The notes under the pieces were generated by a model. The model saw nothing but the letters and a program-made list of their open reading frames with translations. It made no database searches and was not told the origin of the DNA. Positions 27,706-41,492 of a stretch of 60,874 bases of DNA are shown piece after piece (positions within the stretch are counted from its first letter, which is position 1; every line of letters begins with the position of its first letter). This DNA is from Pseudomonadales bacterium (GTDB lineage Bacteria > Pseudomonadota > Gammaproteobacteria > Pseudomonadales > Azotimanducaceae): positions 1 through 60,874 of the forward strand of contig JAJEIQ010000037.1 in NCBI GenBank assembly GCA_022827905.1. The letters are read 5' to 3'. The translations under genes and the position numbers were made by a program.

Positions 27706-27746
27706 TGCCGAATACTATCACAAAATCAGATATTTATAAACGAAAA

Positions 27747-27764
27747 TCGGCCCGAAAACGGGCC
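27747..27764 (-). terminator. hairpin between tnpB and tnpC
   Basis: The minus strand forms the perfect stem GGCCCG/CGGGCC around a TTTT loop, followed by GATTTTCG and A/T-rich DNA. It lies between the tnpB stop (27796) and the tnpC start (27705). It may be a weak terminator or attenuator limiting tnpC, but the T-run is interrupted, so function is uncertain. Confidence 0.35.
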
Positions 27765-27795
27765 TATCGAAGCGCTTTTACAGCAGTCTTGAGCG

Positions 27796-28146: not shown

Positions 28147-28565
28147 CACGAACCGCCCGCCAGCGCCACGACGATCGCCGCGATCCCGGCCGTGTCGGTG
28201 ACCCCCTCCAGCCGGACCGTCACGCCGCGTCCTTCGATCACCGCCGAATGCGCCGCCTCCACTTCCACGGCGGCAAACCCCACATCCGGCTGCGCCTGCG
28301 CCGGGGACGGCGCCACCAGCTGGCCCCGGCGCAACAGCGTTCGCCACGACGACAATCGGTTGCGCGGAATGCCGTGACGCTTGGCCACCGCCGTGATCGT
28401 CTCCGCGGATGCGAAGCTCTCGCGTGCGATCCGGACCTTCTCTTCCACGCTCCAGGACCGACGCGTTCTTCGCTTCCTCGGCTTGCGCCCAACCGCAGCT
28501 GCTCCATTGGTCGCAGCCGTCCCGCCACTGACTTCAACCCCGGCATCAAAATCATGGTTCCGCAT
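28146..28565 (-). CDS. tnpA: IS66 family protein TnpA (helix-turn-helix)
   Basis: The 139 residues begin with a low-complexity Ala/Gly stretch and a basic segment (RKPRKRRTRRSW), then an HTH of the IS3/IS66 Orf1 type: VEEKVRIARESFASAETITA and VAKRHGIPRNRLSSWRTLLR. It is the DNA-binding partner of the transposase. AGGAGGG lies just upstream of the ATG. It is about 80 bp inside the right end of the element. Confidence 0.9.
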   Translation of the reverse strand: MRNHDFDAGVEVSGGTAATNGAAAVGRKPRKRRTRRSWSVEEKVRIARESFASAETITAVAKRHGIPRNRLSSWRTLLRRGQLVAPSPAQAQPDVGFAAVEVEAAHSAVIEGRGVTVRLEGVTDTAGIAAIVVALAGGS

Positions 28566-28646
28566 TGGATAACCCTCCTATAGGGAAAGGAGTCATCCAA
28601 TCTCAACAGCACCACGAACGGAAGGTGGGCTCGGCTAACCGCTTAC

Positions 28647-28654
28647 CCTTAATA
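28647..28654. repeat. IS66 target-site duplication, right copy
   Basis: CCTTAATA, identical to 26073-26080. On the minus strand this copy contains TATTAA, which forms the -10 of a candidate promoter (28649-28677). Confidence 0.92.
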
Positions 28655-28677
28655 CCGTCGATCGCGAAAATAATCAA
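28649..28677 (-). promoter_or_regulatory. candidate cassette promoter, now pointing into the IS66 element
   Basis: On the minus strand TTGATT (28677-28672) and TATTAA (28654-28649) are separated by exactly 17 bp. Before the insertion this would have driven the zinc-protein gene at 26041. The IS entered right at the -10, so this promoter copy now reads into the element toward tnpA. The copy of the duplication next to the zinc gene keeps the -10 but has no -35 at 17 bp. Confidence 0.35.
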
Positions 28678-28818
28678 AAGCGTCCCACCATGACGCCATT
28701 TGGAGTCGCCGTGAGTCAATCGAGAACGCGAACGCCGCAGTCTGTAGCCGGGGGTCCGCTCCAATGTGGGAACGCAGCTAGCACCCAGATGCGGAGACGA
28801 GCGCTTTGAACGGCGTAG

Positions 28819-29022
28819 TCAGATCATCTCGAAGTGACGGAACGCCTCGAAGATTGCGGGGCGCTTGTCCGCCGGGCAGGGCTTCTCGCGGGCACCCCTG
28901 CGGTTGTGCGCCTGCCTTACACGCAACCCCTTGAGTTCCTTGCAGTGCGCTATCCAGCACGTCTGCGCCACCCACCCGTGTTTCCGTTCTATCCGTTCCT
29001 GAATCTGCTCATATGTCGCCAT
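28819..29022 (-). CDS. small conserved hypothetical protein (67 aa, TCWIAHCKE type)
   Basis: The sequence starts MATYEQIQERIERKHGWV, contains TCWIAHCKELKGL and ends KRPAIFEAFRHFEMI. I recall small proteins with the same layout in many bacterial accessory regions; their function is unknown to me. It is helical, with two cysteines in the middle and one near PCPADKR. The ATG at 29022 is chosen over a longer frame to 29049 because the protein then begins like its relatives. It lies 56 bp downstream of a predicted nuclease gene and may act with it. Confidence 0.68.
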   Translation of the reverse strand: MATYEQIQERIERKHGWVAQTCWIAHCKELKGLRVRQAHNRRGAREKPCPADKRPAIFEAFRHFEMI

Positions 29023-29078
29023 TGGTCTGTAAGCTCCCGTATAAAACAAGCTGGAGAACGATCGCTGGGGATTCTAGG

Positions 29079-29651
29079 CTACTCGAACCCTTCGATCCAA
29101 ACTGGAGCACCCTCTGGCGCCATCCAGTGTGGCCAACCGCTCGTATCGACACGAACGGGCCGGGCCTTGGAAAGCAGTACGAAGCTGGGGGTTACGCAGT
29201 TCGCCCACACCATGTCCGGATTGAATAGCTTCGAAAGCCAATCGGCCTTGTTTTGCAACTGCTTGTTGTCCCAAGCTCCCTCGTATTTCGCCTCGACCAA
29301 TGCAATGCGAGTCGAATCGATTCCATGTTGAAAGACGACCATCAGGTCAATGTCAATAACCGACCTAGGAAGGCCAGTCGAGTCGAGATTGCGCCGCCGT
29401 GGCTCTCCGGGTCGAATCGCACGATTGCCGCCAAAGGTATCGGAAAGCGCCTCCTCCAAACAGGCTAGCTGATAGTCAACCACGACGTAGGCGTTGTGGG
29501 GGACTGGTGTCCCAATCGCTCTTCCCAACTCCTTTCGGAAGGCGGGACCGAGCGATAGCGAAGAGCGCTTTAATCCCATGACGTAGCGGATCAGATGGAA
29601 ACGCTCCCGAACGTTATGACGCGCTAAAGCGTTTCTGAAAGTCTGCGACAT
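29079..29651 (-). CDS. predicted PD-(D/E)xK endonuclease (190 aa)
   Basis: The protein ends with a restriction-like core: VIDIDLMVVFQHG with aspartates (about D100 and D102), then IALVEAKYEGAWDNKQLQNK with the E-x-K pair (E120, K122) and a Gln (about Q131) where many such enzymes carry one. The N-terminal 90 residues are helical and basic. The ATG at 29651 has GAGG nine bases upstream, which excludes the longer frame to 29771. No specific enzyme can be named. It pairs with the 67-residue gene downstream. Confidence 0.62.
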   Translation of the reverse strand: MSQTFRNALARHNVRERFHLIRYVMGLKRSSLSLGPAFRKELGRAIGTPVPHNAYVVVDYQLACLEEALSDTFGGNRAIRPGEPRRRNLDSTGLPRSVIDIDLMVVFQHGIDSTRIALVEAKYEGAWDNKQLQNKADWLSKLFNPDMVWANCVTPSFVLLSKARPVRVDTSGWPHWMAPEGAPVWIEGFE

Positions 29652-29964
29652 TGAGCGGTTCCTCAGGGGAGTGGTGATTGAGATTTGGGCACGGTCGCCT
29701 CGCCAAGCTCCTCTAGTACCACTTCCCGCTTCGCTTGACCACACTCCATGATTGCACCGCACGTCAAACACATCGCAGCACCGAGGCCACTCCTATTGTA
29801 TCGCCCCGAAGCCCCACGAATAGCCCAATGAGCAGACCAATCCGCGCTACTCCAACCAAAACGCGCAGCCACACGTTGGCTTTCTGGCGTTTTGCCGCCG
29901 CGTAGCAAGGACCAGCATTCCTTCAGCTAGTGCGTACTTGCGCAAGTCACGACCGGGCATGGCC
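29652..29964. other. intergenic stretch after the six-gene operon
   Basis: This region lies between the stop of the phospholipase-D-like gene and the 190-residue nuclease. Two very short minus-strand frames overlap here: one encodes a hydrophobic stretch (VLVGVARIGLLIGLFVGLRG, without an ATG start) and one encodes 36 residues starting MCLTCGAIMECGQ. Neither has a good ribosome site, so I do not call them genes. No terminator was recognised. Confidence 0.4.
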
Positions 29965-30855
29965 TTAGCGAATACGCTCTGACGCCAGCAGCTTCCCTGG
30001 CATCAACTGTGCGGAAGTGGTAGCCGTGGCTGAAACCATGACAGTGTTCTCGCCAAACTCGCCAAGCCACTGACACAGCCGCTCCGCCGTCTCCCTTGAA
30101 AGTCCTTCCATTGCCGAGGAGGCTTGGCTTGAAAGCAGGGAGCGAAGCTCAGGGATGCCCATGGGCGAAACCCTGCCCTCGAATGCGGCGCGAACAACTC
30201 GAAACGCGGTCGCATTGAATGTTGCTTTCCGAATCTCAGCCCGCCCGGCGGCATTTTCGCCGAGCCGTAGGGCATCCCTGTCCCGCACAGACTCGTCGTT
30301 GTGAGGAATTTCTCCCGCCATTGCCTTAAGGAAACGAGCGGGGTCCGATTCAGGGATCCAGACAGGAATCCTGTCGTGATGGCCAACATCGCTTGCGAGT
30401 GGATCTTGAAGTGCGACATCCTCTCCCATCGGGCTAGCTGGGGACGAGATTTCCTGAACGCGACGAACCAGCTGTTTGATCGGATCAATTCCTGCATCTT
30501 CGAGAACGAGCAATTCGAGATTGCCCTTCGGGGGGCCGCTCAACCCAGGCGTCGTGGCATTTGCGGAACCGAGAAGTGCCTTGTTGTCTGCTATGTAGAG
30601 TTTCGCATGAAGCCCGGGGCACGCAAAAATAGGAACTCCATGTCGGCGGGCCACATCCCATGATCGCCAGTCGGATGCGCCCGATGCAATGTCCTGCAAG
30701 TCCCACCGGACATAGACACTACGCTCAGGCACCCGCCTAGCCGATTCAAGCAAGGAATCCAAGGCTTCCGCACCAACAAAGGCTGAGACGATGATGACCC
30801 GCCTGTTAGCCCGAGCGAACAACTGTCGTATTTGGCCTATGGGTGTCTCAATCAC
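29965..30855 (-). CDS. phospholipase D-like HKD-domain protein, last gene of six-gene operon
   Basis: The protein (296 aa) begins with a PLD-type fold: VIIVSAFVGAEALDSLLESA, then one HKD motif GLHAKLYIADNKALLGSANA (H83, K85, D90, followed by GSANAT). Only one HKD is visible, so a dimer would be needed to form an active site, as in nuclease-type PLDs. The C-terminal half is helical and not recognised. The GTG start overlaps the stop of the GHKL ATPase gene by 4 nt (GTGA). PLD proteins act as nucleases in systems such as DISARM (DrmC) and Dpd (DpdK); a similar effector role is inferred here. Confidence 0.78.
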   Translation of the reverse strand: MIETPIGQIRQLFARANRRVIIVSAFVGAEALDSLLESARRVPERSVYVRWDLQDIASGASDWRSWDVARRHGVPIFACPGLHAKLYIADNKALLGSANATTPGLSGPPKGNLELLVLEDAGIDPIKQLVRRVQEISSPASPMGEDVALQDPLASDVGHHDRIPVWIPESDPARFLKAMAGEIPHNDESVRDRDALRLGENAAGRAEIRKATFNATAFRVVRAAFEGRVSPMGIPELRSLLSSQASSAMEGLSRETAERLCQWLGEFGENTVMVSATATTSAQLMPGKLLASERIR

Positions 30856-32789
30856 TCATCGAATTCCAATATGTGCGCGGCTTTTTCGCTCCACAGGCTG
30901 AGGCTCAAGTTCAATGCACGTGCCTCGTCGTGTTTTCTTAAGGCATTGGCTTCAGCAAGCGAGCGCGCGAAAGATGCAATCAATCCGCGAATCACACGGA
31001 GGGCGTCCCCTGGATTGGGCGGCTCCCCCTCATCCTCACTATCACTCTCATCCCCATCATCAATTTCTTCGGAAACTAATAGCCCTGCCATTGCTTCGCT
31101 AAGTGGGTGCCCTCCGTGAAACTTCACAATCAAATGGCCGGGACCCTGCGCGATGCTGAACATAATGGTTGGCTGTCCATACGGGTCCAAGACGTAATCT
31201 AGCTTTAGCCCATTGTCCATGACTTCACTGGGCCTGACATCCTGGGCCCGCTCGTCGCCTGCCAACGTGTCGCCATACGCTTTAGCGGTTCCTTCCCGGT
31301 CGGAAGACGGCTTCGTGTTGTCCATGGGAATTTCCCGTCCCTTCTTGGACAGCGAGTCCCCGTCTTGCTTAAGTTCGTCCACGGGTGGGGTGTAGGGGTC
31401 TTGAGGGCCTCCATTCCAGTTGCCTCCCGATCTTGCATCTTTTCTTTGTTTGCTGACGATCTTTTGCATGTGCCCGAGCAGATCCTTGATCTCTTCGGCC
31501 ACTTCCAAACACCTTATGTCCTTCCAATCCTCTGCCGGTTCTCCTTCCTTCCGTAGCACATCCAGACGTTCCTTGATTTCCTTGATAGGAATGGGAGCGA
31601 GATCGGCGAGACCCCGGACCTGCTGTTTGTCGTTGGAAACGCCGAACACATCATCAAGGTCTGGATCAAAGTCAATGCTCACGGACACCCAGCGGTCAAC
31701 CGTGCGGTCGCCCCTCAGCCACGCCGGATCAAGCGCAATTTCGCGCTCAGACCGCATCAGCGATACTCCCCTAAGTCGATTCGCGAGTTTTCCAAAGGGG
31801 GCTTGGCCCGGATCTCTGTACTTGTTCTTCAGTTTTTCATCTTTAACAACCCGCTGTCTGCGGTACGAGGCCGTAAGCAGATAGTTGCCAACAACATCGC
31901 CTTCAGGCCCCCTGACTTCTTTCAAATCCGGTTGGTACTTCCCGTCCATGTCTTTTCCCTCATCACCGGGGTGCCCGGTGTAAGGGGTGAACAACGTTGA
32001 GTCGCCAGTGAATCCGTCGTCACTCAGATCATCGTCTTTCCAATTTGTCAGAAACGTGGGGTCCACCGGCTCCGCCCACATAGGGGTTCCGAGCATAGCG
32101 TTCGCAGCTTTGTCAAAAACGTTCACCATAATCGAGAGCCGCCCACTCTTGATGAACTCCCTGTGGATGCGTCCGCACAGATCGCAGATATTCCGTTTTA
32201 GGGTTTCCGCCAGTCTCTGGTGGGTCGTGGAAACATCCCTCCAGACAACCAGCGTTCCGCTCTTCATCTTTGAGATTGGTTCAGGCATCCCGTGGAACGC
32301 CGCAGCCGCCCACTCGGGAATTTCCTCGATGGAGGGTTCCGGTAGCAGATTAGCGGCGATACCAGCCTCATCCGACAGGCGGAGACGAGTTGCTGGCACC
32401 TTGTCGGCTGCGGTTTCGCCCTCCTGCCATGACATGACCTGAAGGTCGGTGCACTGGCTGAAGGAAGAGGCGACAAGCCCCACACCGAACTTGCCAAGGC
32501 GCTTCGAGGCCTTCGTCCCATTGCTGGCCTCGCCTTCGTCTTTCGCTGTTCCGTACCCATATTGCACGCAACGCCGTAGCAAGTCGCGGTCCATCCCCAC
32601 CCCATTGTCCAGAACAGCTATTTCCGAGGGGCGCCTACCCCCGTCTACAATGAGCGCCACCGCAATTTCTTTCGCCTTTGCATCCGCGCTATTGTCAATG
32701 AGTTCGGAGATCGCGTATGCCTCGTTACGGTAAGGCCCAGATCGAAGAGCCCTGAGAACCAAGCTGGCCGGAAAGATGTGGTCAGTCAT
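30852..32789 (-). CDS. GHKL (Hsp90/MORC-like) ATPase, fifth gene of six-gene operon
   Basis: The N-terminus is a clear HATPase_c domain: EAYAISELIDNSADAKA is the N-box (E29, N33) and VLDNGVGMD is the G1 box (D61, G63, G65). A later SKRLGKFGVGLVASSF is the G2/lid region. The middle continues as an S5-like transducer region. The acidic tail (EEIDDGDESDSEDEGE) precedes helices up to residue 645. Start: AAGGAG nine bases before ATG 32789; the upstream GTG at 32816 would include the ribosome site itself. GHKL ATPases of this type clamp around DNA or clients and occur in several defence systems. Its exact family is not determined. Confidence 0.83.
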   Translation of the reverse strand: MTDHIFPASLVLRALRSGPYRNEAYAISELIDNSADAKAKEIAVALIVDGGRRPSEIAVLDNGVGMDRDLLRRCVQYGYGTAKDEGEASNGTKASKRLGKFGVGLVASSFSQCTDLQVMSWQEGETAADKVPATRLRLSDEAGIAANLLPEPSIEEIPEWAAAAFHGMPEPISKMKSGTLVVWRDVSTTHQRLAETLKRNICDLCGRIHREFIKSGRLSIMVNVFDKAANAMLGTPMWAEPVDPTFLTNWKDDDLSDDGFTGDSTLFTPYTGHPGDEGKDMDGKYQPDLKEVRGPEGDVVGNYLLTASYRRQRVVKDEKLKNKYRDPGQAPFGKLANRLRGVSLMRSEREIALDPAWLRGDRTVDRWVSVSIDFDPDLDDVFGVSNDKQQVRGLADLAPIPIKEIKERLDVLRKEGEPAEDWKDIRCLEVAEEIKDLLGHMQKIVSKQRKDARSGGNWNGGPQDPYTPPVDELKQDGDSLSKKGREIPMDNTKPSSDREGTAKAYGDTLAGDERAQDVRPSEVMDNGLKLDYVLDPYGQPTIMFSIAQGPGHLIVKFHGGHPLSEAMAGLLVSEEIDDGDESDSEDEGEPPNPGDALRVIRGLIASFARSLAEANALRKHDEARALNLSLSLWSEKAAHILEFDE

Positions 32790-32831
32790 TGTTTTTTTCT
32801 CCTTGATTGGATGCACTGGCTTTCGGACAGG

Positions 32832-34061
32832 TCATGCGGGAGTATCGCCCTCCCAGAGGCTCTCCCACTGACAGAACATGTCGGCCAACTCAGCGTACTC
32901 GGCATAGGACGCGTCCACGATCATGTGGATGGTTGCCTCTTTCGTCCCGCCTGATTTCGGTCCCCTCAACGCCCTGCCGACCATCTGCTGAAGTCGAACG
33001 GCGCTCTTGGTCGGTTGGCCGATTACAGCCCCACTAATTTCAGGGGCATCGAACCCGGCGGTGAGAACGTTGCAGTTGAACAGCACTTGGGGAGGTCCGG
33101 TGGCCGCGGGCTGTTGGAAGGTCTTCGTGTAGTGTTCCCGATCTTTCACAGGGGTTTCTCCAGAAACCGCATGGGAGTATGCATATCCACCGCCTCGCAT
33201 CGCGGCGGCGCATTCCTCAGCAGAGGCAACGGACGGCGTGAAGGCAATTACGCGCCGATGGCCCTCGTCAAATAGCCTCTGGACAAGTCCTAAGATCCTA
33301 TTGTTTCGCTCCCTGTCCTCCCCCAAGTCCGCAAGTGCGCTGTCAGAATACTCCGCCCCCTGCTCGTTGGGCACCGATGTACTTTCGATGTCGTGCGTCT
33401 CAATAACTGCACGGGCCAAATACCCCTCGTTGACCAAGTAGCGCACCGGGTTGCCCATCTCTCCTATGCCGACTTTCCGTCCTTCGTACATTTTGACCAG
33501 CCTTCTTGTCTCGTCGGGACTTGCCCTTCCGGGTGTTGCGCTTAGACCCAATAGCCTCCGCTTTGCAAGGCCGCCGCCAGCCAGGATGCTCTCCACAAGG
33601 TCGCGAAACGTAGGGGCCACCGAGTGATGCGCCTCGTCGAACACCACCAAGCTGACCCTATCTAGCAGCGACTGCTCGATCCACTGACTGGCGCTGATTG
33701 ACTGGCCTGCCATCTGGAGGCCTGCGATAAGGACCGTGTTGCGGCGGATTGTGGTTCCGTGTGTAAACCGCTCGCCGCCACCACGCCACTGTATCACTAC
33801 TGCTTTGACATCCCCTTGGGCTTCCCAAGCAGCGCTGAACGCCTTCGCCGCTTGCTCAACCAGCTCCTTGGTTGGCGCGAGCCAAAGCACCATGGTGGGT
33901 GCGTTTTGTCGAAGGTGCATGGACACGACAGACATTGCCATGCGGGTCTTTCCCGCCCCAGTCGGGGCGTGCAGCAGCACCCGGTCGTGATTTTCCAGAG
34001 TGCGGAGCACCGCATCCACAGCATTCTTCTGGTAGGGCCGCAACGAGTAACGCGGCGACAC
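32832..34061 (-). CDS. SF2 DEAH-box helicase, fourth gene of six-gene operon
   Basis: This is a two-domain helicase of 409 residues. It has the Q-motif-like RYSLRPYQKNAVDAV, Walker A PTGAGKT (33-39), DEAH (142-145), SAT (174-176) and motif VI QMVGRALRG (about 365). It resembles the SSL2/RAD25-like or type III restriction helicases without extra domains. The listed start is GTG 34061. A better ribosome site, GGGAGG, lies five bases before an in-frame ATA 15 codons upstream (34094-34096), so a rare ATA start is possible. It is separated from the DndC-like gene by 123 bp, the only sizeable gap in the operon. Confidence 0.84.
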   Translation of the reverse strand: MSPRYSLRPYQKNAVDAVLRTLENHDRVLLHAPTGAGKTRMAMSVVSMHLRQNAPTMVLWLAPTKELVEQAAKAFSAAWEAQGDVKAVVIQWRGGGERFTHGTTIRRNTVLIAGLQMAGQSISASQWIEQSLLDRVSLVVFDEAHHSVAPTFRDLVESILAGGGLAKRRLLGLSATPGRASPDETRRLVKMYEGRKVGIGEMGNPVRYLVNEGYLARAVIETHDIESTSVPNEQGAEYSDSALADLGEDRERNNRILGLVQRLFDEGHRRVIAFTPSVASAEECAAAMRGGGYAYSHAVSGETPVKDREHYTKTFQQPAATGPPQVLFNCNVLTAGFDAPEISGAVIGQPTKSAVRLQQMVGRALRGPKSGGTKEATIHMIVDASYAEYAELADMFCQWESLWEGDTPA

Positions 34062-34184
34062 TTCGTCAAAGGTAGGTGTTTCGCTTGCTATGGTGACCTC
34101 CCTAGGGACGTGCTGTGAAGTGTGTTAACAGGTGACTTGTAACGTACCGAAACCCAGCCAAGGGCCGCTCACACTGGCAGTGAA

Positions 34185-35087
34185 CTAAAGCGAGCAGACT
34201 GCGCAAGCTTGGTCGTGCGGGTCATCCTCGGCAAGGTTTGCCGCCAGCAAGGACTCCTGCCAAGACCGCGGACCATCACTCGCGATTATCTCGCCATCCC
34301 TCTCGCCCATGGATCCGGCCTCTTGATCGAGGTCGGCCAAGGAAATCTTGTCCATCCATGTGTACATGCGGCCAGTGTCGGGGTCGAAGGTCTCCTCCTC
34401 GTAGCGCATGGCCTTCTCAAACAGGTCGGGATGCTCCCTGCGCAGCCCCAACCATTCGCTTTTGCGCTGGAAAAAGCAAAAGTAGCAGCCCGAGCGCGAC
34501 CGCCACCTGTAGTAGTCGGGCAATCCTGTCGTTTCCTCAAGCAGCGCAACAATGTCATCCCGCACCAGCCCGTCGCGAACGAACGGATAGACGGCGGTCA
34601 CGTTCTTGAGTGAACTGAGCTTGGAGCGCGAGGCTTCGTCAGCACGAATGCCAACATAGTTTATTGTGGGGGCATCGCCGACAAAGGCGTTCATGGGCTT
34701 GATCTTCATTTTGTATGTGCACCACCGCTGCCGCCTTGACGGCAGAAGGCCACCATGCTCCGCCCACAGGAAATGGTCGAACGGGGCCGCGTTGGCATCA
34801 CTGCCGTTTGGGAACGGGCTCAGCCTGCGCACTGGCTTGCCGAGAAACTTCTCCAGTATCCCAAGGTATTCGTAGACTTCCGGCAGTTCCTTACCCGTGT
34901 CGGTGAAGAAGTGCTCAATTGCCGGCGCCTGGCGAGCCTGTTCAATTTCCCGGGCAGCGTCGGCGCAGTCTGATGCGGCGAGCAGTTCGCAGAAGTAGCG
35001 CCAGTCCCCCTCCTTGCGGGCGAGGTGGATGGCGAGCGCCGCTGAGTCCTTGCCGCCGGAAATCCCGAGGATGTGCCTAGTTTTCAT
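34185..35087 (-). CDS. DndC/BrxP-like PP-loop protein (PAPS reductase fold), third gene of six-gene operon
   Basis: This 300-residue adenine-nucleotide alpha-hydrolase has the PP-loop ISGGKDSAALAI (residues 9-20), the second motif FFTDTGKELPEVYEYL and a cysteine set RRQRWCTYKMKI plus SGCYFCFFQRKSEW that could hold an Fe-S cluster, as in DndC and SspD. Those proteins activate a substrate with ATP before sulfur transfer to DNA; BREX type 4 BrxP has the same fold. Here no DndA, DndD or DndE homologue is adjacent. The C-terminus ends CAVCSL, another CxxC. Its ATG overlaps the stop of the large ATPase gene (ATGA). Confidence 0.83.
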   Translation of the reverse strand: MKTRHILGISGGKDSAALAIHLARKEGDWRYFCELLAASDCADAAREIEQARQAPAIEHFFTDTGKELPEVYEYLGILEKFLGKPVRRLSPFPNGSDANAAPFDHFLWAEHGGLLPSRRQRWCTYKMKIKPMNAFVGDAPTINYVGIRADEASRSKLSSLKNVTAVYPFVRDGLVRDDIVALLEETTGLPDYYRWRSRSGCYFCFFQRKSEWLGLRREHPDLFEKAMRYEEETFDPDTGRMYTWMDKISLADLDQEAGSMGERDGEIIASDGPRSWQESLLAANLAEDDPHDQACAVCSL

Positions 35088-38000
35088 GCGGTCTCCCTGA
35101 ACGTTTGGGCCAGACTTGCGATGACAGCCATGCGCCGCGCCTTGGGAACGGATGCCAAAATTGCCTTGGCCTCTTGCTCCTGCGGCACCGTGTTCCTGGT
35201 GCCTGCCCCCGGCAAGAAGACTACGAAGGGTTTTGCATCAGGAGGCGCCTCGGCGTCCTCCAACATCCGTCCGGCCTCCTGCACGGCCATGAGTGTCCGA
35301 CGCAAGGCGAATTCGGCCTGCGCTACATGGGCATCGGACCACAACTCCAGCGGCTGCCGAATGCCCAGTCCATCATCGACAATGCGCGCGAGCCAAGCGA
35401 GGTCGTCAAGATTTCCATGTCCCAATGCCGCTTTCACAAAATCGCCGTATCCGTGGTGTATGCGGCTGTCTCGCAACACTGATTCAGCGCAACCGACGCA
35501 TTCCCGCCTAGCTTCTGAGAGCGTCCCCTTACCCCAAACCTCCACGACAACGTCAGCCAAGGCTCGCAGGAGCGACACGTCAGCGCATTCAAGGGAAACA
35601 CGCGCATCCTCGACGTGAGCAAGGTACTCCTTGGCATCTGCGCCGCGCGACGGTAGCCGACTGTGTCCCAACGCGCTTGGAATGGCTCGAAACAGCATAT
35701 CGCCTGGCGACTTGGCAACACGAAACGCACGCCGAAAGGCACATGCAGTTTCGGACACTGTTTGCGTGCTGCGAGCATAGTTGGAAAGCTCCGCGTGGCG
35801 TTTAAGGGCGGCCCTCGCAACGGCGACCGGCGTGACATGCTCCGAAGGCTCCCTCTCCCCAGAGAGGGCTTGCCGGTACTTTGCCATGAACAACTTGCCA
35901 ACCGGGGCATCGGTCGTTGCGGAAACGCTGAACCTCTTTGGCGCCTTGACCATCCGCACCAGCGTTTGCGGCCCCCAATCAGGGAGGTAGCCGCCGGACT
36001 CGTAGAGTTCATAGCGGTCCCGTTCGACCAACAGGATGACGGCGCACAGCAGCAGCGCAGGACTCCGCTTGACACCAAAGGGTGTTTCGCTCAAAGCACA
36101 CACCATGTCCTCGACCGATTTCGCGCCACCTTCCGCCGCAAATTGCTGGCGGATTTCCGCGAGTACCTGCCGAAGTCCGTCGGGCATTGCTCTTCCCGTT
36201 GTGGTGAGCCGCCAAGTTCCGTCACGCCCCTTCACATGCAGCCGGCTTCCCTTGATGAACACCTCGTACAGGATGCGCTCAGCAGGAAACCGCTCAATAC
36301 CTAGCCTCTCCGTCGAAGGGGATCTGCACATGGCTTCGATGAGCTTCCTAAAAGCCGCTGAAGCTTGCCCACTGAGCTGATCCCGGTTGAACATGTCCAG
36401 ATGGAGTTCGAACGCCATTGGGTACGCCTTATCCATGGCCGCGGTCGCCGCTTCTTGCATCGAGCCAAACTCCTGACCTCCAAGCCTCCATTCGGTTTTG
36501 GATAAGGCGAGCCACTCTTCAACAAGAGCCGAGACCGCGCCGTCGTGATGCTCAAGGCGAATGCGCATCTCCTTGGCTGCCACTTTGTCTCCCAGCAGAT
36601 CCGCATCGCCTTCCAAAAGCCGCCGGATGGCCGCACTTGCCTTCAAGTGAGGGGTCAGGGCGGCACTGGAAATGAAGGCGTGAACATCCACGCCAGTGCA
36701 GGTCGCCACTTCGGGAGGCGCACCAAGTCCAACAAGGATGCGCGGCCCTCCAGCGGGCGGGGGAACGTGCTGGCCCGGATTCAGCCACATTAGGCGAGCC
36801 ATGCGGCGATTTCCCGTCTCTATGTAGTGACGGTGGGCGAGCACATCGCGCGCGAACCTCTGGTTCATCTCCAACGCGGCATCCAATTCAACCATGGACA
36901 TTTCCGCGTCGATCTTCCCGACGACATCATAGTCACTTCCCTCCCACACGACGTATTCGCTGCGGAATTCGCGATGGACAAGCAGGGCTCGGCTGACCAA
37001 GCACTCAACGTTGGCCTCAAAGGGAAAGCGGGCAGGCAGGCAGGCGAGTGCACCTCCTTGGTCAGCGGAGATTCCACGCCCGCTGCAGAAGCTGAGCAGC
37101 GCCATGACCTTGAAAAGTGACCGCGTCCTCGCTTCCAAGTCATCCCCGACCCGTTCCCAAGCTCCATAAATGGCGGCAAACCGCTTGGCGAACACGGGGT
37201 TTGAAGGGGTTTTCAATGCATCCGCGAAAAAGTGGTCGAAGAGCGCCTCTGGACGCACCCAGCCTCCCCGCGCCGATTTACGGGCAGCGGCGAATCCCGC
37301 GGGTTTTTCTGAAGACAGCCAGCCCACAACCGTGCGATCCTGCTGGCCCAGAAGGCGTGAAAGGCGTGTGAGCAAAGCAATGGTCATAGGGTGCAGCGGA
37401 CGACAGGCTGCGCATGCGTCAAGGAATTCCTGATCCCGCATCAATGTCGGGCTCAACTTGCTCTTGTCGGGGGCAATTGAGCGGGGCACCTGCCCGCTTT
37501 GGAGTTTAGGAAGTGAGCGCAGGGCGCTCGCAATGATACGGGCGGTGTCCGTCTCAGAGTTCTGAAGAACCGTCTCCCTGAACCGCCCCCTAACCTTCTC
37601 CCACTCTGTCCGATCGTCGCCGAGCAGCCTGTCGGCGTAGTGGTCTAATCCATGGTGCTGCACTATGACTAAGGTGAGCGGCGCATCCGGACGCCCGGTC
37701 GACTCCGCGATTTCCTGAAGCAGATGGAGATCCGCGCCGCCCGCGGGGCCAAGCATTTGTTCCAGATGCCTGCCGAACTCGTCAATGGCTAGGAGAACGC
37801 CAGCGCCCCCACTGGCGCGGATGGACTTGGCGAACGTCCTCAGAGACTCTGCCGCCAGCGCTTGGGAGCTTTTGCCAACCGAAGCGGACAGCGCGACGCG
37901 CAGGGCACATGCCCCTGGGGCGTCCGGATTGCGTTCGGCAAAGTCCTCCGCAACAGAGAGGATTTTCGATGCGAGACTTTCCGTTGAGCCAGTGAAAGCC

Positions 38001-38299
38001 AAGGGGACCAACCCGCCCGCCTCGCGCAATCGGATTGCCGGGCAATCCTCTCCCCGGAACAGCTCAGACGAAGACGTCGACGGGTTTTCGATTGTCGAAC
38101 GGGTAACTTGGTTCAGCAAGAAGGCCAGCAGGGATGACTTTCCTGCCCCATACGGCCCTTCTAGCGCGAGTGCGGCGCCACCATGGAGGGCCTTCTCAGA
38201 CAGCTCCCCAATGAACTCCTTTGCTTGGCTAGTTGGGTAATACCATTCCCTCGCCCACCTGATGTCCTCTATGCTCTCAATGTTGGTGGAAAGTCGCAT
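35084..38299 (-). CDS. large BrxC/PglY-like P-loop ATPase, second gene of six-gene operon
   Basis: This is a 1071-residue protein. Walker A GPYGAGKSS lies at residues 48-56 and Walker B GVLLAIDEFGRHLEQML about 185 residues in. The N-terminus begins RLSTNIESIEDIRWAREWYY, like ATPases that sit at the core of BREX (BrxC/PglY) and related systems. The remaining 800 residues are helical and lack familiar domains. I place the start at ATG 38299, eight bases after the DUF4007 stop; an ATG at 38341 would add 14 residues and overlap that gene by 35 nt. It probably works as the motor or assembly platform of the system; this is inference. Confidence 0.78.
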   Translation of the reverse strand: MRLSTNIESIEDIRWAREWYYPTSQAKEFIGELSEKALHGGAALALEGPYGAGKSSLLAFLLNQVTRSTIENPSTSSSELFRGEDCPAIRLREAGGLVPLAFTGSTESLASKILSVAEDFAERNPDAPGACALRVALSASVGKSSQALAAESLRTFAKSIRASGGAGVLLAIDEFGRHLEQMLGPAGGADLHLLQEIAESTGRPDAPLTLVIVQHHGLDHYADRLLGDDRTEWEKVRGRFRETVLQNSETDTARIIASALRSLPKLQSGQVPRSIAPDKSKLSPTLMRDQEFLDACAACRPLHPMTIALLTRLSRLLGQQDRTVVGWLSSEKPAGFAAARKSARGGWVRPEALFDHFFADALKTPSNPVFAKRFAAIYGAWERVGDDLEARTRSLFKVMALLSFCSGRGISADQGGALACLPARFPFEANVECLVSRALLVHREFRSEYVVWEGSDYDVVGKIDAEMSMVELDAALEMNQRFARDVLAHRHYIETGNRRMARLMWLNPGQHVPPPAGGPRILVGLGAPPEVATCTGVDVHAFISSAALTPHLKASAAIRRLLEGDADLLGDKVAAKEMRIRLEHHDGAVSALVEEWLALSKTEWRLGGQEFGSMQEAATAAMDKAYPMAFELHLDMFNRDQLSGQASAAFRKLIEAMCRSPSTERLGIERFPAERILYEVFIKGSRLHVKGRDGTWRLTTTGRAMPDGLRQVLAEIRQQFAAEGGAKSVEDMVCALSETPFGVKRSPALLLCAVILLVERDRYELYESGGYLPDWGPQTLVRMVKAPKRFSVSATTDAPVGKLFMAKYRQALSGEREPSEHVTPVAVARAALKRHAELSNYARSTQTVSETACAFRRAFRVAKSPGDMLFRAIPSALGHSRLPSRGADAKEYLAHVEDARVSLECADVSLLRALADVVVEVWGKGTLSEARRECVGCAESVLRDSRIHHGYGDFVKAALGHGNLDDLAWLARIVDDGLGIRQPLELWSDAHVAQAEFALRRTLMAVQEAGRMLEDAEAPPDAKPFVVFLPGAGTRNTVPQEQEAKAILASVPKARRMAVIASLAQTFRETA

Positions 38300-38306
38300 T
38301 TGCGGA

Positions 38307-39209
38307 TCACATATTTCTCTCGAAGAACCGATCATCCACATCCGCCGTCAGCCCGTTCCTGCATATCTCGCCCCATTCCCCGCAAGCCACGAGCATGGAG
38401 TCCCCGCCCGGCATCGCAGACAGTGAAAGGGGGGCTTGCCGCCTTCGGCAGATGCGTTCGACTGAGCCATAAAAGCCGTCGCTTGTGAGACCGAAAACCA
38501 CACCTGGAGAGGTCAGTGCGTTGCGGTTGAGGTACAGCGAGGACAGAGTTGAGGATTCAGCCCTTCTCTTCGCTAAGGACGAAAGCAAAGCGTGCTCAAC
38601 GACCCGCTCCGTGACGTGGGCTCGGTTATTCTCCCACGTCCGTCTATGCCGCCCTCGACGACCGTGTCCGCCTTCCGTCAGCAGCCCCAGTTGCGCAAAG
38701 AAGCGGTCCCCGATGTCCTCGTTTAGACCACTGGCGTCTCGCGTGTGCATTCGTATCACGGCTTCGACGTCCCCACGCACGGTGCCTTTCGAGTAGGCGA
38801 CGCCAGCGGCAGATGACAAATGCTGAACAAACTTGTCTATCGCGTCGTCAGTCGTGAAGCGGTCGTAGGTGATGCGATTGAATGCCCATGCCGCGGCGGA
38901 GGCCCTTTCGACGTTCCCGGCAATTTGCCAATGCAGGAACGCAATGCTCTCGGGCCGCTCAAGAAATGGGTCGTGGTCAACAAACAGGCGTCTTCCAAGC
39001 CGTGTAATTTCGCCACCATCGCCCAGAACGCCGCTCACCCTGCCCCATGCGCGCATGGACTTCGCCATGTTTTTCCCAACGCCCAAATCGCAGGCGATGG
39101 TTTCGAGATTGGCAGGCACTCTCCCCGCCCCTCCGTATCTGTGGACCATTCGAGGAAGCCAAGAAAGCCTGAGCGGGAACCCGCCAAAATGCCCCACAAC
39201 ATAATGCAT
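38307..39209 (-). CDS. DUF4007 family protein, first gene of six-gene operon
   Basis: The 300-residue protein matches the DUF4007 layout: GHFGGFPLRLSWLPRMV at the start, then CDLGVGKNMAKSMRAWG and RLGRRLFVDHDPFLERP. The middle carries basic segments (GGHGRRGRHRRTW) suited to nucleic-acid contact, and it ends with a winged-helix-like region. As I recall, DUF4007 genes often accompany DndC-like genes in defence islands, but no activity is established to my knowledge. The ATG at 39209 is used because the longer frame (39251) would start inside the -10 box of the operon promoter. Confidence 0.8.
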   Translation of the reverse strand: MHYVVGHFGGFPLRLSWLPRMVHRYGGAGRVPANLETIACDLGVGKNMAKSMRAWGRVSGVLGDGGEITRLGRRLFVDHDPFLERPESIAFLHWQIAGNVERASAAAWAFNRITYDRFTTDDAIDKFVQHLSSAAGVAYSKGTVRGDVEAVIRMHTRDASGLNEDIGDRFFAQLGLLTEGGHGRRGRHRRTWENNRAHVTERVVEHALLSSLAKRRAESSTLSSLYLNRNALTSPGVVFGLTSDGFYGSVERICRRRQAPLSLSAMPGGDSMLVACGEWGEICRNGLTADVDDRFFERNM

Positions 39210-39250
39210 TTCGATCGTTCGCCTGCCCGCCGTCGTTGCTGTCGGCAACA

Positions 39251-39279
39251 ACTATACCGAACGTAAGCAGACCCCTCAA
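39251..39279 (-). promoter_or_regulatory. promoter of the six-gene operon
   Basis: The minus strand shows TTGAGG (39279-39274), 17 bp, then TATAGT (39256-39251). Transcription would begin near 39244, leaving a leader of about 35 nt before the DUF4007 ATG at 39209. The match in both hexamers and spacing is good. Confidence 0.55.
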
Positions 39280-39830
39280 ACAGATGATTGCACAACCCAC
39301 CCTATTGCTGGATTCCCCCGGCCGCTGCCTTTGATCTACGCTTTCACGGATTCGGACCCCAGTTGGGTCAACAGCGACTACTTCCTATAACGAGATTGTC
39401 CAACTCGATGCTCCGATGTCCTAATTTCAATATTTTCAATCACTTGAAGATCCCTCGCTCTGTCTTAACTGGTCCCAAACGCCCCAAGTTTGAACCCGCC
39501 TCCCGCGACACCTTCAGCGTAGATGCGCACCACTCAGTGATCCTCGAGATCAAAGTCAGGGCGGTTCCTCCGCTTCAGTACTCGGCGCGGGCTAGGAACT
39601 TGGGGGCGGCGGCGTGTGGCTGCCATATAGCTTCCCCCCAATCGCCGGGGACGGCTGTCGAGCTGATCCTTCATGGTGCCATGTTGGCAGGCCGCCAACA
39701 GGTTGTCTGTACGCTTTCTCGGCACCAATTGTGGGAGATCGCCACCGCGAAACCGCAGACATCACCTCCTATGGGTCAATGTCGCACAAGCCGTCGGCCA
39801 GATTCCTGAGCGAAGGGCTGTCCTTCATCC
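39280..39830. other. non-coding stretch upstream of the six-gene operon
   Basis: About 550 bp of A/T-richer DNA. Open frames here (for example 39288-39809 plus, 39534-39728 minus) have no ribosome site, no recognisable sequence and many rare-looking codons. Together with the argG relic at its end, I read it as decayed DNA between two insertions. Confidence 0.45.
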
Positions 39831-39985
39831 GCAACCATACGCACCGCGATCATCCTGCAAGGTCACCACGTCCTTGTCATAAAGGCTTTCGGGGGACCGG
39901 CGGCCGAGCACGGAGACCGTGCCCTTGTAGAGCTTCAGCTGCACTGTGCCGCTGACCGGCTCCTGGGAAGCATCGATTTGAGCAG
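39831..39985 (-). pseudogene. argG: argG 3' fragment (argininosuccinate synthase relic)
   Basis: The minus strand encodes [20 protein letters not shown] followed by [20 protein letters not shown] and AYG, then a stop. This matches the C-terminal region of argininosuccinate synthase, whose common form is V.G.VRLKLYKGN..V.GR.SP.SL.D...ATF..DRGAY. About 45 residues are recognisable; the upstream frame is unrelated and the last 40 or so residues of a normal ArgG are missing. It is a broken remnant. A complete argG must be elsewhere if the cell makes arginine. Confidence 0.6.
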
Positions 39986-40128
39986 GACGGTGCCGCCGGA
40001 CGATACTCAAGCCGAGGAAACCCCGCTCAGCTGCTGCCAAATCCGGAGGACTTGGGTGGCAGCACCCAAGCAACATCCCCAATCCCGCGGACGGTGCCGC
40101 GTTGGCTCATGCGTAGATCCAGTCGGAT

Positions 40129-40398
40129 TCAATCTTCCGATTCCGGCTCCTCATGTTCCGTGCTGTTGCGATCTTCCACGATTTGCTGCTGCAAGGATGC
40201 CAGGGAACCCACCAACGCCAGATCATGTACGCCACCAAGCGCGCCCCACGACCGCATATCGACGCCGTCCTCAAAGATCGCGCAAAACGCATAGGCAACG
40301 ACGGGGTTGTCGTCGATATCTTCGTCGAGCGTCTTGATGAGGCCCGCCAACTCCTCGTTGAGAAACGCCTCACTGCGGTCAAACCTAACGACCTTCAT
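40129..40398 (-). CDS. hypothetical protein (89 aa), acidic
   Basis: A small acidic protein beginning MKVVRFDRSEAFLNEELAGL and ending in a charged tail (EDRNSTEHEEPESED). I do not recognise it. The composition is protein-like (ordered hydrophobic positions, VVAYAFCAIFEDG) and the frame is longer than its shadows. The ribosome site is weak (GAGA about 14 bases upstream). It follows the larger nuclease-like gene in the same direction with 150 bp between. Confidence 0.45.
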   Translation of the reverse strand: MKVVRFDRSEAFLNEELAGLIKTLDEDIDDNPVVAYAFCAIFEDGVDMRSWGALGGVHDLALVGSLASLQQQIVEDRNSTEHEEPESED

Positions 40399-40549
40399 GT
40401 TTAACTGGTCTCGCTGCTTTTCTTTGTCCAGACCAAAAAAAGGGCCCGCCTATCACCCGCGTATGCCAAGCCGCTGAATATTGTGCCCACAAGTGACCTC
40501 ACTGACCTGCGTTGCTTTGGGACTAGTCTGCTGTCGAGACAACCCACAA

Positions 40550-41374
40550 TCAGCTTTGAATGCGGTAGCCATTCGACCTCATTACGTTTCCAATGTGTCC
40601 CAACTGTCCATCGGTTGCTTCGTTCTCCCTTGCGAATGCCTTTGCTTTCTCCCAAATTTGACCAATAGCTTCCTTATCCTCCTGTTCTGGAAGTCCCCAA
40701 CTCTCCTTCGAACCGTTTTGGTACTCGATCACGAGGTAACCTTCTTCAATTCGCACAGACTGCTTATTCGTGGCTTTGCGCCGAGCTCTTTGTCTTTGAG
40801 AAATAACCTTCTCATCGTCCAACAACATTGAGCGGGCGATGACCTCTTTGTCAGCGATTTTGAAGTATGAGAACGTCGCCGCGTTGATGTCCACACCGTG
40901 GGAAGTGGACAAGTACTCCACGATTCGCTGTGTCGGGGCATCAAGCGATGACGCAACTATGTATACGTGTTGCCTTTCGTTCACGACCTCCGGAGGTTCG
41001 CTTCCGAAGGTTTTCTGGAACGCATCTTCGAAAGACTGACCCTTAAAGTGCTTTTTGGCTATTTCCTCAACATCGTCTCGGTCAAGCTCGTTTACCCAAG
41101 ACGCGTAGTCCAATACCTGCGCAACCACGTCCCTAGGCGTCTTTTCCCGCTTCAGTTCAATGACAACAAGATGGCCTTGTGAATTGACGGCTAGCAGGTC
41201 CAGAATTCCGCCATACTTGTGAATCTGTGAACCGATAACCAGCAGATTGTTGCTGAGCAGGCCGATGTCCTGCTTCAGCCAATCTTCGAGCCGTTCTTCC
41301 AAGTCTAGCCGCTCAGGCTCAACTTCAGTGGGACGGTTGGTCTCCACCGTCCAGAGTTTCGTTTTCAGAGCCAT
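40550..41374 (-). CDS. DUF91/NucS-like PD-(D/E)xK protein
   Basis: A 274-residue protein with a nuclease-type core: IHKYGGILDLLAVNSQGHLV (D59) followed by VIELKREKTPRDVVAQVLDY (E73, K75), and the typical QVLDYASWV helix. The N-terminus contains LEDWLKQDIGLL as in many DUF91-like proteins. A second domain runs from about 115, and the C-terminus ends with a helical region (QIWEKAKAFARENE). It stands at the right edge of the island just before pnp, mirroring the other DUF91-like gene at 23603. Substrate unknown. Confidence 0.72.
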   Translation of the reverse strand: MALKTKLWTVETNRPTEVEPERLDLEERLEDWLKQDIGLLSNNLLVIGSQIHKYGGILDLLAVNSQGHLVVIELKREKTPRDVVAQVLDYASWVNELDRDDVEEIAKKHFKGQSFEDAFQKTFGSEPPEVVNERQHVYIVASSLDAPTQRIVEYLSTSHGVDINAATFSYFKIADKEVIARSMLLDDEKVISQRQRARRKATNKQSVRIEEGYLVIEYQNGSKESWGLPEQEDKEAIGQIWEKAKAFARENEATDGQLGHIGNVMRSNGYRIQS

Positions 41375-41492
41375 GCACTTCTCCCATCAGGCAACTCGTA
41401 AGCTATCCGTGTGTTGCATCCGAGCTAAACAAATCTGGCGCTCGGTGATCCTCCGTTCATTCCCCGCAGAGTGAGACAATGTAAATGACTCC

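What the first reader, a model, noticed from the sequence alone, without database searches (positions are those of the whole stretch)
29965..39279. Six-gene operon with DUF4007, giant ATPase, DndC-like, DEAH helicase, GHKL ATPase and PLD: candidate uncharacterised defence or DNA-modification system
Six intact minus-strand genes follow one promoter. Several junctions overlap by 4 nt (ATPase/DndC-like ATGA; GHKL/PLD GTGA), the DUF4007-ATPase gap is 7 nt, and the largest gap is 123 bp. Every product has a fold known from phage-defence systems, but the combination is not Dnd (no DndBDE), Ssp (no SspB/C), BREX (no PglZ, no methylase), DISARM (no DUF1998, no methylase) or Dpd (no 7-deazaguanine enzymes). 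A PP-loop enzyme with Cys motifs suggests DNA modification; helicase, GHKL ATPase and single-HKD PLD suggest the restriction side. I recall DUF4007 genes beside DndC-like genes in other genomes, so parts of this set may already be listed as a candidate.
Basis: partly seen in the sequence, partly recalled or inferred. Interest (0 to 1): 0.85.

Follow-up and report, generated by a model that had tools for sequence, protein, structure and literature searches.

The report
DNA-sulfur defence operon, unnamed cutting half
This bacterial gene cluster probably marks the cell's own DNA with sulfur and uses a helicase, a MORC-like ATPase and a nuclease against unmarked invading DNA; the marking half is a known system, while the cutting half is one we could not find described.

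Summary
The six minus-strand genes are real and intact. The downstream half (SF2 helicase, GHKL/MORC-like ATPase, single-HKD PLD) shows no match to SspF/G/H models that do work on a control locus, and no SspE-type domain was found in the genome. In a sample of 398 Pseudomonadota genomes the GHKL gene occurs in 6, all among the 11 with SspD and all beside ssp genes (Fisher 9e-11). Cyanobacteria agree. In one congener the same six genes, split over two contig ends, lie at the same pnp-side site; in another the site is empty. All six genes are under purifying selection. Best reading: a phosphorothioate restriction-modification system with an undescribed restriction half resembling a split PbeA plus a MORC-type ATPase, and a candidate for the partner that Wang et al. 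2021 found missing beside most sspBCD. Untested: chemistry, phage defence, and whether the trio attacks unmodified DNA or is licensed by the mark.

The parts
38307..39251 (-). SspB (DUF4007); TTG ORF start at 39251, ATG at 39209 is the likelier start
   Evidence: PADLOC SspB 6.9e-42, Pfam DUF4007 1.2e-35, solved SspB 6juf 4e-11; dN/dS 0.09 against congener
35084..38341 (-). SspC, large ATPase with Walker A (GPYGAGKSS); likely start ATG 38299
   Evidence: PADLOC SspC 8.4e-146 over residues 32-1018; BrxC weaker, 9.5e-56; dN/dS 0.17-0.19
34185..35087 (-). SspD, PAPS-reductase-like PP-loop enzyme with SGGKDS and four conserved Cys (C201, C204, C295, C298)
   Evidence: PADLOC SspD 2.1e-82; alignment A4 of 7 sequences; dN/dS 0.09
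32832..34061 (-). SF2 helicase, restriction-half component 1; motifs APTGAGKT, DEAH, SATPGR, QMVGRALRG intact; lacks the N-terminal extension of most relatives
   Evidence: Pfam ResIII, DEAD, Helicase_C; PADLOC best PbeA 5.1e-23; alignments A1, A7
30852..32816 (-). GHKL (HATPase_c_3) ATPase, MORC-like, restriction-half component 2; E38, N42, D70, G74, G108, G111, G113, T188 conserved; GTG 32816 or ATG 32789
   Evidence: Pfam HATPase_c_3 6.9e-20; profile best PDB match human MORC2 1.9e-9; A2, A5
29965..30855 (-). single-HKD PLD protein, likely nuclease, restriction-half component 3; H83, K85, G96, S97, N99, E114 invariant in 9 sequences
   Evidence: Pfam PLDc_2 1e-4; alignment A6; fold matches include SauUSI, NgoAVII R-protein, Nuc, NucT
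22610..41492 (.). about 18.9-kb inserted island between pnp (41493-43592) and an acetyl-CoA-synthetase-like gene (20689-22623); it holds the six genes, an IS66-type element and side nucleases
   Evidence: congener G962 joins the two flanks with 4 bp between, G960 with 124 bp (L139, L142); congener G958 has the six genes and one 340-aa ORF there (L141, L149)

Best explanation
A phosphorothioate (PT) restriction-modification system. SspB, SspC and SspD, with sulfur from a housekeeping IscS-like desulfurase, put a sulfur on the DNA backbone at some sites of the host genome. The other three proteins form the restriction half: the SF2 helicase translocates on DNA, the MORC-like GHKL ATPase closes on or loops DNA in an ATP-dependent way, and the PLD protein, as a dimer, cuts. 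My best guess is that lack of the mark triggers the attack (as published for SspFGH and DndFGH); licensing by the mark (as for SspE) remains open. Shown here: gene identities, motifs, linkage, selection, presence of the set at one insertion site. Inferred: PT chemistry, complex formation, cutting, phage defence, direction of discrimination.
For: SspB/C/D identity. No GmrSD_N domain (my proxy for SspE) in the genome; the SspH model hits only one 768-aa FtsK-like frame. A desulfurase gene beside an IscR-like ORF at G000:C37 (IscR and IscS named by my reading of the ORFs). GHKL in 6 of 398 Pseudomonadota genomes, all 6 among the 11 with SspD; 7 of 7 distinct Pseudomonadota hits (with G185) carry helicase, GHKL, PLD and at least two ssp genes in the stretch seen (Fisher 8.7e-11, or 3.1e-9 without the own genome). 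Cyanobacteria, 292 genomes: 11 strong GHKL genomes, 10 with an ssp gene on the same contig; 9 of the 11 are among the 19 with strong SspD (p 1.3e-10). Distances of helicase and GHKL track those of SspC (r 0.68 and 0.78, 23 loci). The set at the same site in congener G958, empty site in G962; dN/dS 0.09-0.25 for all six. The PLD model matches restriction nucleases among others. In L007 and L009, both beside SspBCD, the PLD gene is replaced by another putative nuclease.
Against: No chemistry or phage data. Some relatives lack the PLD gene (9 of 37 GHKL loci: 2 have the other nuclease, 1 is cut by the region edge, 6 cyanobacterial ones have none seen), so the nuclease may not be essential. In G958 the helicase is split over two frames, so that copy may be dead or misassembled, and its two contig ends share 68 bp at 98.5% but no exact overlap, so their adjacency is not proven. 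Two cyanobacterial genomes with weak GHKL hits (167-179 bits) have no ssp, helicase or PLD match in the one stretch fetched from each; the second hit of G830 was not opened. The promoter scan gives no support for one transcript. PbeABCD, the nearest relative of the helicase, was reported not to cut viral DNA (PMC6459918, passages).
Confidence: 0.7

Rival explanations
1. PT-licensed effector, as SspE: the trio binds the host's own mark, which switches on its ATPases, and then attacks foreign DNA; without SspBCD it is silent.
For: SspE works this way with the same SspBCD (PMC13251355, passages). One cyanobacterial locus (L051) carries an SspE-like gene together with helicase and GHKL.
Against: Pfam recognised no PT-reader domain in the trio. 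By my coverage cut-offs, 5 of the 6 PLD-less cyanobacterial loci have a broken SspC, SspD or helicase, against 3 of 28 loci with PLD, which fits toxicity on unmodified DNA better; but the genomes are few and related, general decay explains it too, and several PLD-bearing loci lack one or more of these genes in the stretch seen.
Confidence: 0.3
2. It is simply SspABCD-SspFGH or SspE in a divergent form.
For: The modification half is the same, and SspF is also a Walker A protein (PMC8092258).
Against: PADLOC SspF, SspG, SspH models hit the control genes of L007 at E < 1e-200, but no SspF/G/H appears in the full GHKL and PLD hit lists nor in the helicase's best 25 of 61. The Agrobacterium plasmid of L007 carries helicase and GHKL genes beside SspFGH and SspBCD, so they are separate modules. 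No GmrSD_N domain in the genome.
Confidence: 0.03
3. MORC-like silencing rather than cutting: the GHKL ATPase compacts or clamps unmarked DNA and blocks its replication; helicase loads it; PLD is an accessory or back-up.
For: Best solved match of the GHKL profile is MORC2; PLD missing from some loci; PbeABCD and SspFGH were reported to stop phage replication without visible DNA breakdown.
Against: PLD catalytic-type residues are invariant in 9 sequences, and another putative nuclease takes its place in two loci, which suggests that cutting matters. SspFGH did give TUNEL signal in PT-lacking cells.
Confidence: 0.15
4. Chance or decaying neighbours: the trio and SspBCD are two unrelated gene sets of a defence island.
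For: Module orientation varies between loci (for instance L008, L080, L100, L103); the window island also holds IS66 and NucS-like genes.
Against: Linkage statistics, the set in a congener at the same site, purifying selection.
Confidence: 0.06

Closest known systems
SspABCD-SspFGH (Wang et al. 2021, PMC8092258)
   Same: SspBCD modification half; three-gene restriction half next to it; sulfur from IscS
   Different: SspF/G/H models do not match the window trio; SspH has an FtsK-like C-terminus, none of the trio has an FtsK domain in Pfam
SspABCD-SspE
   Same: SspBCD modification half
   Different: No GmrSD_N domain in the whole genome; that SspE is of GmrSD type is recalled
DndCDEA-PbeABCD (PMC6459918; PMC10853773)
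   Same: PT-based; PbeA joins a PLD domain, a ResIII-type SF2 helicase and a helicase C-terminal domain; the window helicase matches PbeA best in PADLOC (5e-23)
   Different: Here PLD and helicase are separate genes, the partner ATPase is GHKL rather than the ABC-type PbeC, and the modification half is SspBCD rather than Dnd
MORC/paraMORC restriction-modification operons (Iyer et al. 2008, PMC2292703)
   Same: GHKL ATPase + SF2 helicase + nuclease, including a few HKD cases
   Different: Those gene neighbourhoods frequently carry DNA methylases; here the modification half is SspBCD
CglI / NgoAVII (PMC4267653) and SauUSI
   Same: PLD nuclease that needs an SF2 ATPase (CglI, NgoAVII); the PLD model matches 4rct and 7clg
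   Different: C5-methyltransferase partner for CglI and NgoAVII; no GHKL protein in their gene lists; SauUSI appears in the PDB as a putative helicase / ATP-dependent restriction endonuclease, one chain with the PLD-like stretch
Type-4 BREX
   Same: Shares SspB-, SspC- and SspD-like proteins (PMC12839542, passages)
   Different: No PglZ or BrxL among the window proteins scanned; SspC and SspD models beat BrxC and BrxP

Membership tests
SspBCD phosphorothioation module | SspB, SspC and SspD together in order | tested here: met
   PADLOC 6.9e-42, 8.4e-146, 2.1e-82 in adjacent genes
SspBCD phosphorothioation module | Cysteine desulfurase SspA in cis or IscS in trans | tested here: met
   No desulfurase recognised among the island genes scanned; desulfurase beside an IscR-like ORF elsewhere, G000:C37; IscS substitution is published for E. 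coli 3234/A. Activity not tested
SspBCD phosphorothioation module | Phosphorothioate in genomic DNA | not testable with these tools
   Needs LC-MS of native DNA
SspABCD-SspFGH | SspF, SspG, SspH genes | tested here: not met
   No SspF/G/H hit for GHKL or PLD, none in the best 25 of 61 for the helicase; positive control in L007; SspH model finds only a 768-aa FtsK-like frame in the genome
SspABCD-SspE | SspE, sought as GmrSD_N domain | tested here: not met
   0 matches in own genome, 8 of 14 control genomes ring
DndCDEA-PbeABCD | PbeA as a PLD-SF2 fusion | tested here: not met
   Helicase matches the SF2 part of PbeA (model from residue 250 on), but PLD is a separate gene
DndCDEA-PbeABCD | PbeC ABC-type ATPase and Dnd modification genes | tested here: not met
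   The GHKL protein is HATPase_c_3 and has no PbeC hit (that the library holds a working PbeC model was not checked); SspD beats DndC by far
MORC/paraMORC restriction-modification operons | GHKL ATPase beside an SF2 helicase and a nuclease | tested here: met
   7 of 7 Pseudomonadota hits
MORC/paraMORC restriction-modification operons | DNA methylase as modification component | tested here: not met
   No methylase among the island genes scanned; SspBCD in its place
Type-4 BREX | PglZ and BrxL | tested here: not met
   None among the eight proteins given to PADLOC or the island proteins given to Pfam; not searched in the rest of the genome
DISARM | DrmA, DrmB and a methylase | tested here: not met
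   Only weak DrmC hits to the PLD gene, 6.8e-6 at best, among the eight proteins scanned

The most novel reading that the evidence does not exclude
A bacterial MORC-like machine guided by backbone sulfur: the GHKL ATPase, loaded by the helicase, traps and compacts DNA that lacks phosphorothioate, so that unmarked phage DNA is silenced, and the PLD protein cuts only what has been trapped. It would be a prokaryotic counterpart of eukaryotic MORC silencing that reads an epigenetic mark.
Probability: 0.12. Interest if true: 0.87.

Novelty: new variant of a known kind. Interest (0 to 1): 0.62.

Why it matters
Wang et al. 2021 reported that most sspBCD loci (2,211 of 2,678) have neither sspE nor sspFGH and named further restriction partners as one possibility (PMC8092258, passages). 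The helicase-GHKL-PLD trio is such a candidate, with tight linkage in two phyla and separate motors and nuclease that can be deleted one by one. It also ties a MORC-type ATPase to a DNA mark that a bacterium probably makes itself, which makes the role of MORC-like ATPases in restriction testable in E. coli.

Tried and rejected
Rejected: 'not Ssp'; trio = SspFGH; SspE elsewhere in the genome; Type-4 BREX, DISARM, Dnd, PbeABCD as membership. Side genes as system members: the 29079-29771 ORF, the NucS-like gene 40550-41374 and the 89-aa ORF 40129-40398 found no relative at E <= 0.01 in the loci then searched, and the first two none in the G958 and G961 stretches. The third genes of L007 and L009 were first aligned as PLD and then dropped from the PLD profile because they are not PLD.

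Led nowhere: structure of the PLD C-terminal half (pLDDT mostly below 55); GHKL model of middling confidence (65.8) whose fold search mainly returns Hsp90 at high rmsd, besides SMCHD1, MutL and topoisomerase IV; solved relatives of SspC and SspD by single-sequence search (none convincing); promoter scan; naming the species by 16S in the plasmid set (87.0% for the first row). Ten paper searches showed, in the rows listed (lists were cut, for instance 30 of 2,368 and 10 of 146), no paper that describes SspBCD with a GHKL-SF2-HKD partner; the library holds open-licence papers only and no preprints, so a description elsewhere cannot be excluded.

Biases: the 80 SspD loci were found with an alignment whose members all came from loci with the GHKL gene and kept by best score, so the 12 of 80 with strong GHKL is not a frequency. 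SspE and SspFGH were sought with one or two queries each and are lower bounds. The Mantel test used 23 loci chosen for having all five genes and does not separate co-inheritance from species history. Fisher tests treat species as independent and the two samples as the same genomes (same handles).
Full report
What is there. The window is a whole contig (60,874 bp) of a 4.44-Mb, 81-contig genome. Minus-strand ORFs at 29965-39251 encode six proteins in one direction, with two 4-nt overlaps, one 15-nt gap and one 123-nt gap; SspB and SspC overlap as longest ORFs or lie 7 nt apart from the inner ATG. Pfam gives DUF4007, a weak AAA/BrxC-like ATPase signal, PAPS_reduct, ResIII/DEAD/Helicase_C, HATPase_c_3 and a weak PLDc_2. 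PADLOC then names the first three: SspB 6.9e-42, SspC 8.4e-146, SspD 2.1e-82; BrxC, BrxP and DndC models score far lower. The DUF4007 protein also matches the solved SspB 6juf (4e-11).

The downstream half. The helicase has intact SF2 motifs and matches PbeA best in PADLOC (5.1e-23); the GHKL protein matches only MzaB (1.6e-11) and a type II restriction enzyme model (1.2e-9); the PLD protein matches ZacB (5.6e-9) and DrmC weakly. No SspF, SspG or SspH hit is listed (all hits shown for GHKL and PLD, the best 25 of 61 for the helicase). That the library can see SspFGH was checked with an Agrobacterium plasmid locus (L007): its three genes score 2.8e-237, 5.9e-219 and 0 against SspF, SspG and SspH. 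The same plasmid carries, within 22 kb, desulfurase, DUF4007, ATPase and PAPS-reductase genes, SspFGH, and a helicase-GHKL pair with a third gene that is not PLD, so the two restriction modules are different things. In the own genome a GmrSD_N search (my proxy for SspE) found nothing while 8 of 14 control genomes rang, and the SspH model found only a 768-aa FtsK-like frame.

Protein detail. A 13-row GHKL profile has human MORC2 as best solved match (1.9e-9), then MORC4, MORC3, SMCHD1 and, more weakly, Hsp90-type and MutL/PMS proteins; the residues of the ATP site are conserved in the alignments. The AlphaFold model (mean pLDDT 65.8) returns mainly Hsp90, also SMCHD1 and MutL. In the PLD family H83, K85, G96, S97, N99 and E114 are invariant in 9 sequences; in its model the N-terminal half is the confident part (overall pLDDT 60.3), and matches include Zucchini, Nuc, NucT, the NgoAVII R-protein and SauUSI, but also non-nuclease PLD folds and TrmBL2. 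By recall, H, K, N and E are also the catalytic set of BfiI. One HKD motif implies a dimer, as shown for R.CglI (PMC4267653, passages). The window helicase lacks the N-terminal extension of most relatives; the 123 nt before it hold stops in frame.

Is the set conserved? On plasmids, the GHKL protein has 28 records with a match. Of eight regions opened, six (L004, L005, L006, L008, L010, L011) hold helicase-GHKL-PLD together with SspB and SspC (SspD only as a weak partial hit in L011); L009 holds SspBCD, helicase and GHKL with another gene in place of PLD; L007 was described above. The third genes of L007 and L009 are related (471 bits), and that of L007 matches a PADLOC 'Effector, Endonuclease' model (1.7e-10), which I take to be Cap4-like (recalled). 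Hosts of the six are Alphaproteobacteria, Cyanobacteria and a spirochaete. In whole genomes, the GHKL profile at E <= 1e-40 found 6 of 398 Pseudomonadota and 13 of 292 Cyanobacteria, of which 11 score 776-911 bits and two 167-179 bits; the two weak genomes show no ssp, helicase or PLD match in the one stretch fetched from each (L128, L129; a second hit of G830 was not opened). The GHKL protein alone at 1e-20 found 2 of 274 genomes of the own class, one of them new (G185). All seven distinct Pseudomonadota genomes have helicase, GHKL and PLD and at least two ssp genes in the stretch seen. Of the 11 strong cyanobacterial genomes, 10 have an ssp gene on the same contig (in G719 about 10 kb away) and one (G796) is a 12-kb contig with SspD on another contig (G657 seen as L043). 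SspD at E <= 1e-40 occurs in 11 of the same 398 Pseudomonadota; all 6 GHKL genomes are among them and none of the other 387 has it (Fisher 8.7e-11; without the own genome 5 of 10 against 0 of 387, 3.1e-9). In Cyanobacteria SspD occurs in 31 of 292 genomes, 19 with strong scores; 9 of the 11 GHKL genomes are among the 19 (p 1.3e-10; 2.6e-8 if all 31 count).

In the 80 named SspD loci, 12 carry the strong GHKL (350 bits or more: L015, L018, L021, L034, L042, L043, L051, L059, L076, L080, L087, L090), 9 an SspE-like gene (one of them, L051, both), 6 an SspF, G or H relative above 100 bits (two more, L071 and L086, at 36-37 bits) and 8 a second, more distant GHKL family. Two loci (L028, L045) have a helicase relative without GHKL, and most loci show none of these partners. 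The sample is biased (see Tried and rejected) and many loci are cut by contig ends. In 23 loci with all five genes, pairwise distances of SspB, SspC and SspD agree at r 0.90-0.96, helicase with GHKL at 0.83, and across the halves at 0.67-0.78 (p 0.0005 each): the halves travel together, somewhat less tightly than genes within a half.

The insertion site. Congeners (same genus by kinship) show what was inserted; six of the eight were fetched. In G962, window base 41493 (end of pnp) is followed after 4 bp by window base 22609, so 22,610-41,492 is an insertion of about 18.9 kb there; in G960 the two flanks are 124 bp apart, in G961 about 0.65 kb, in G956 about 6.7 kb with little DNA similarity to the window; in G955 the far flank was not found (L138-L143). 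In G958 the contig with pnp continues into a 340-aa ORF, SspB and the first part of SspC (L141), and another contig starts with the rest of SspC, SspD, helicase, GHKL and PLD, then about 150 bp, then window base 22607 (L149). The two contig ends share 68 bp at 98.5% identity but no exact overlap, so that they are neighbours is likely, not proven. No IS66 or side nuclease of the window was matched there. In that copy the helicase lies in two frames. dN/dS between window and G958 is 0.09 (SspB, SspD), 0.17-0.19 (SspC), 0.12-0.14 (helicase pieces), 0.14 (GHKL) and 0.25 (PLD), so all six look under purifying selection. G961 contains an 8-kb stretch identical to JAQAJJ010000015.1 of Candidatus Azophilus lithoversatilis on a contig of the same length, which places the window in that genus or its genome-taxonomy equivalent; NCBI files it under Gammaproteobacteria, Pseudomonadales, Ca. 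Azotimanducaceae.

How it most likely works. SspBCD, with a desulfurase such as the IscS-like one beside an IscR-like ORF at G000:C37, mark host DNA. The helicase, GHKL and PLD proteins act as translocase, ATP-driven clamp or looper, and nuclease. Precedents: PbeA joins PLD and SF2 in one protein of a PT system (PMC6459918 and PMC10853773, passages); MORC-like GHKL ATPases sit with SF2 helicases and nucleases, in a few cases HKD, in predicted restriction-modification operons and were proposed to loop DNA (PMC2292703, passages); CglI needs its SF2 ATPase for its PLD nuclease to cut. Against a simple picture: PbeABCD was reported to stop replication without cleaving, although Rakesh et al. argue for cleavage. 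Direction of discrimination is open. A hint for attack on unmodified DNA: of 37 strong-GHKL loci, 28 have PLD, 2 the other nuclease, 1 is cut by the region edge and 6 cyanobacterial ones have no PLD; 5 of these 6 have an SspC, SspD or helicase broken by my coverage cut-offs, against 3 of the 28 with PLD (tally). A further seven PLD-bearing loci (L011, L021, L076, L101, L123, L125, L126) lack one or more ssp genes or the helicase in the stretch seen, in part because the stretch ends there. The genomes are few and related, so it is only a hint.

What is known and what is not. The modification half is known. The GHKL + SF2 + nuclease theme is known from predicted restriction-modification operons. 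Their combination as SspBCD + separate helicase + GHKL + PLD was not found in the rows listed by ten paper searches, nor do PADLOC 2.0.0 models name the trio. Nine papers were seen only as passages found by terms (one of them with its outline); none in full. Wang et al. state that 2,211 of 2,678 sspBCD had neither sspFGH nor sspE and that more restriction counterparts may exist. I therefore call it a new variant of a known kind.

A side result. Small cyanobacterial genomes carry up to seven SspD-like genes, most of them tail to tail with a dual-PLD gene: 24 of the 27 such genes examined (of 30 weaker SspD hits) abut one (the PLD profile was seeded from five of these proteins). It suggests that HKD nucleases have paired with SspD-type enzymes more than once.

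Noticed in passing
L151-L175 (11 unnamed cyanobacterial genomes of 1.7-2.3 Mb): SspD-like PAPS-reductase genes, up to 7 per genome, sit tail to tail with a dual-HKD PLD gene (ORFs of about 350-670 aa; 2 of 5 tested have an N-terminal SNase domain): 24 of 27 SspD-like genes examined abut one, and 7 loci also hold a gene like the C-terminal part of SspC (112-124 bits). No SspB at E <= 1e-10. Could be a compact, multi-copy phosphorothioate restriction-modification unit.
   Followed up: partly
L016, L033, L035, L038, L041, L056, L078, L089: A second, more distant GHKL family (49-247 bits to the trio profile; MzaB-like in PADLOC for the two tested) lies near SspD, in some loci followed by a short gene of 158-165 aa without a clear family or, in L016, by a gene with weak GIY-YIG and HEPN hits. 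Perhaps another SspBCD partner.
   Followed up: partly
L007/L176 and L009: Variant with a helicase that has lost DEAH and other motifs, the GHKL gene, and a putative nuclease (PADLOC 'Effector, Endonuclease' for L007) in place of PLD; on the Agrobacterium plasmid it stands beside SspFGH and SspBCD.
   Followed up: partly
window 40550-41374: NucS_C-like protein that matches the PADLOC candidate defence family PDC-S11 (1.2e-69) just upstream of the operon; a second NucS_C-like gene at 23594-24445.
   Followed up: no
window 29079-29771: ORF after the PLD gene, likely starting at an inner ATG (about 190 aa), with an EAKYE stretch that could be part of a PD-(D/E)XK nuclease (my reading); no Pfam, PADLOC or NCBIfam hit at E <= 0.1 and no relatives in the loci searched.
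   Followed up: partly
window 22610-41492, downstream of pnp: Insertion hotspot: flanks 4 bp apart in congener G962 and 124 bp in G960, ~0.65 kb in G961, ~6.7 kb of other DNA in G956, the six genes plus a 340-aa ORF in G958; far flank not found in G955.
   Followed up: yes
window 26110-28565: IS66-type element (IS66 transposase, TnpB, HTH_Tnp_1 gene) inside the island; no DNA match to it in the G958 stretches.
   Followed up: partly
L150 (G958:C86) and L148 (G961:C12): Congeners carry a divergent SspBCD-helicase-GHKL-PLD set elsewhere (GHKL about 28-30% identical to the window's), with GHKL split in L150 and SspD split in L148.
   Followed up: partly
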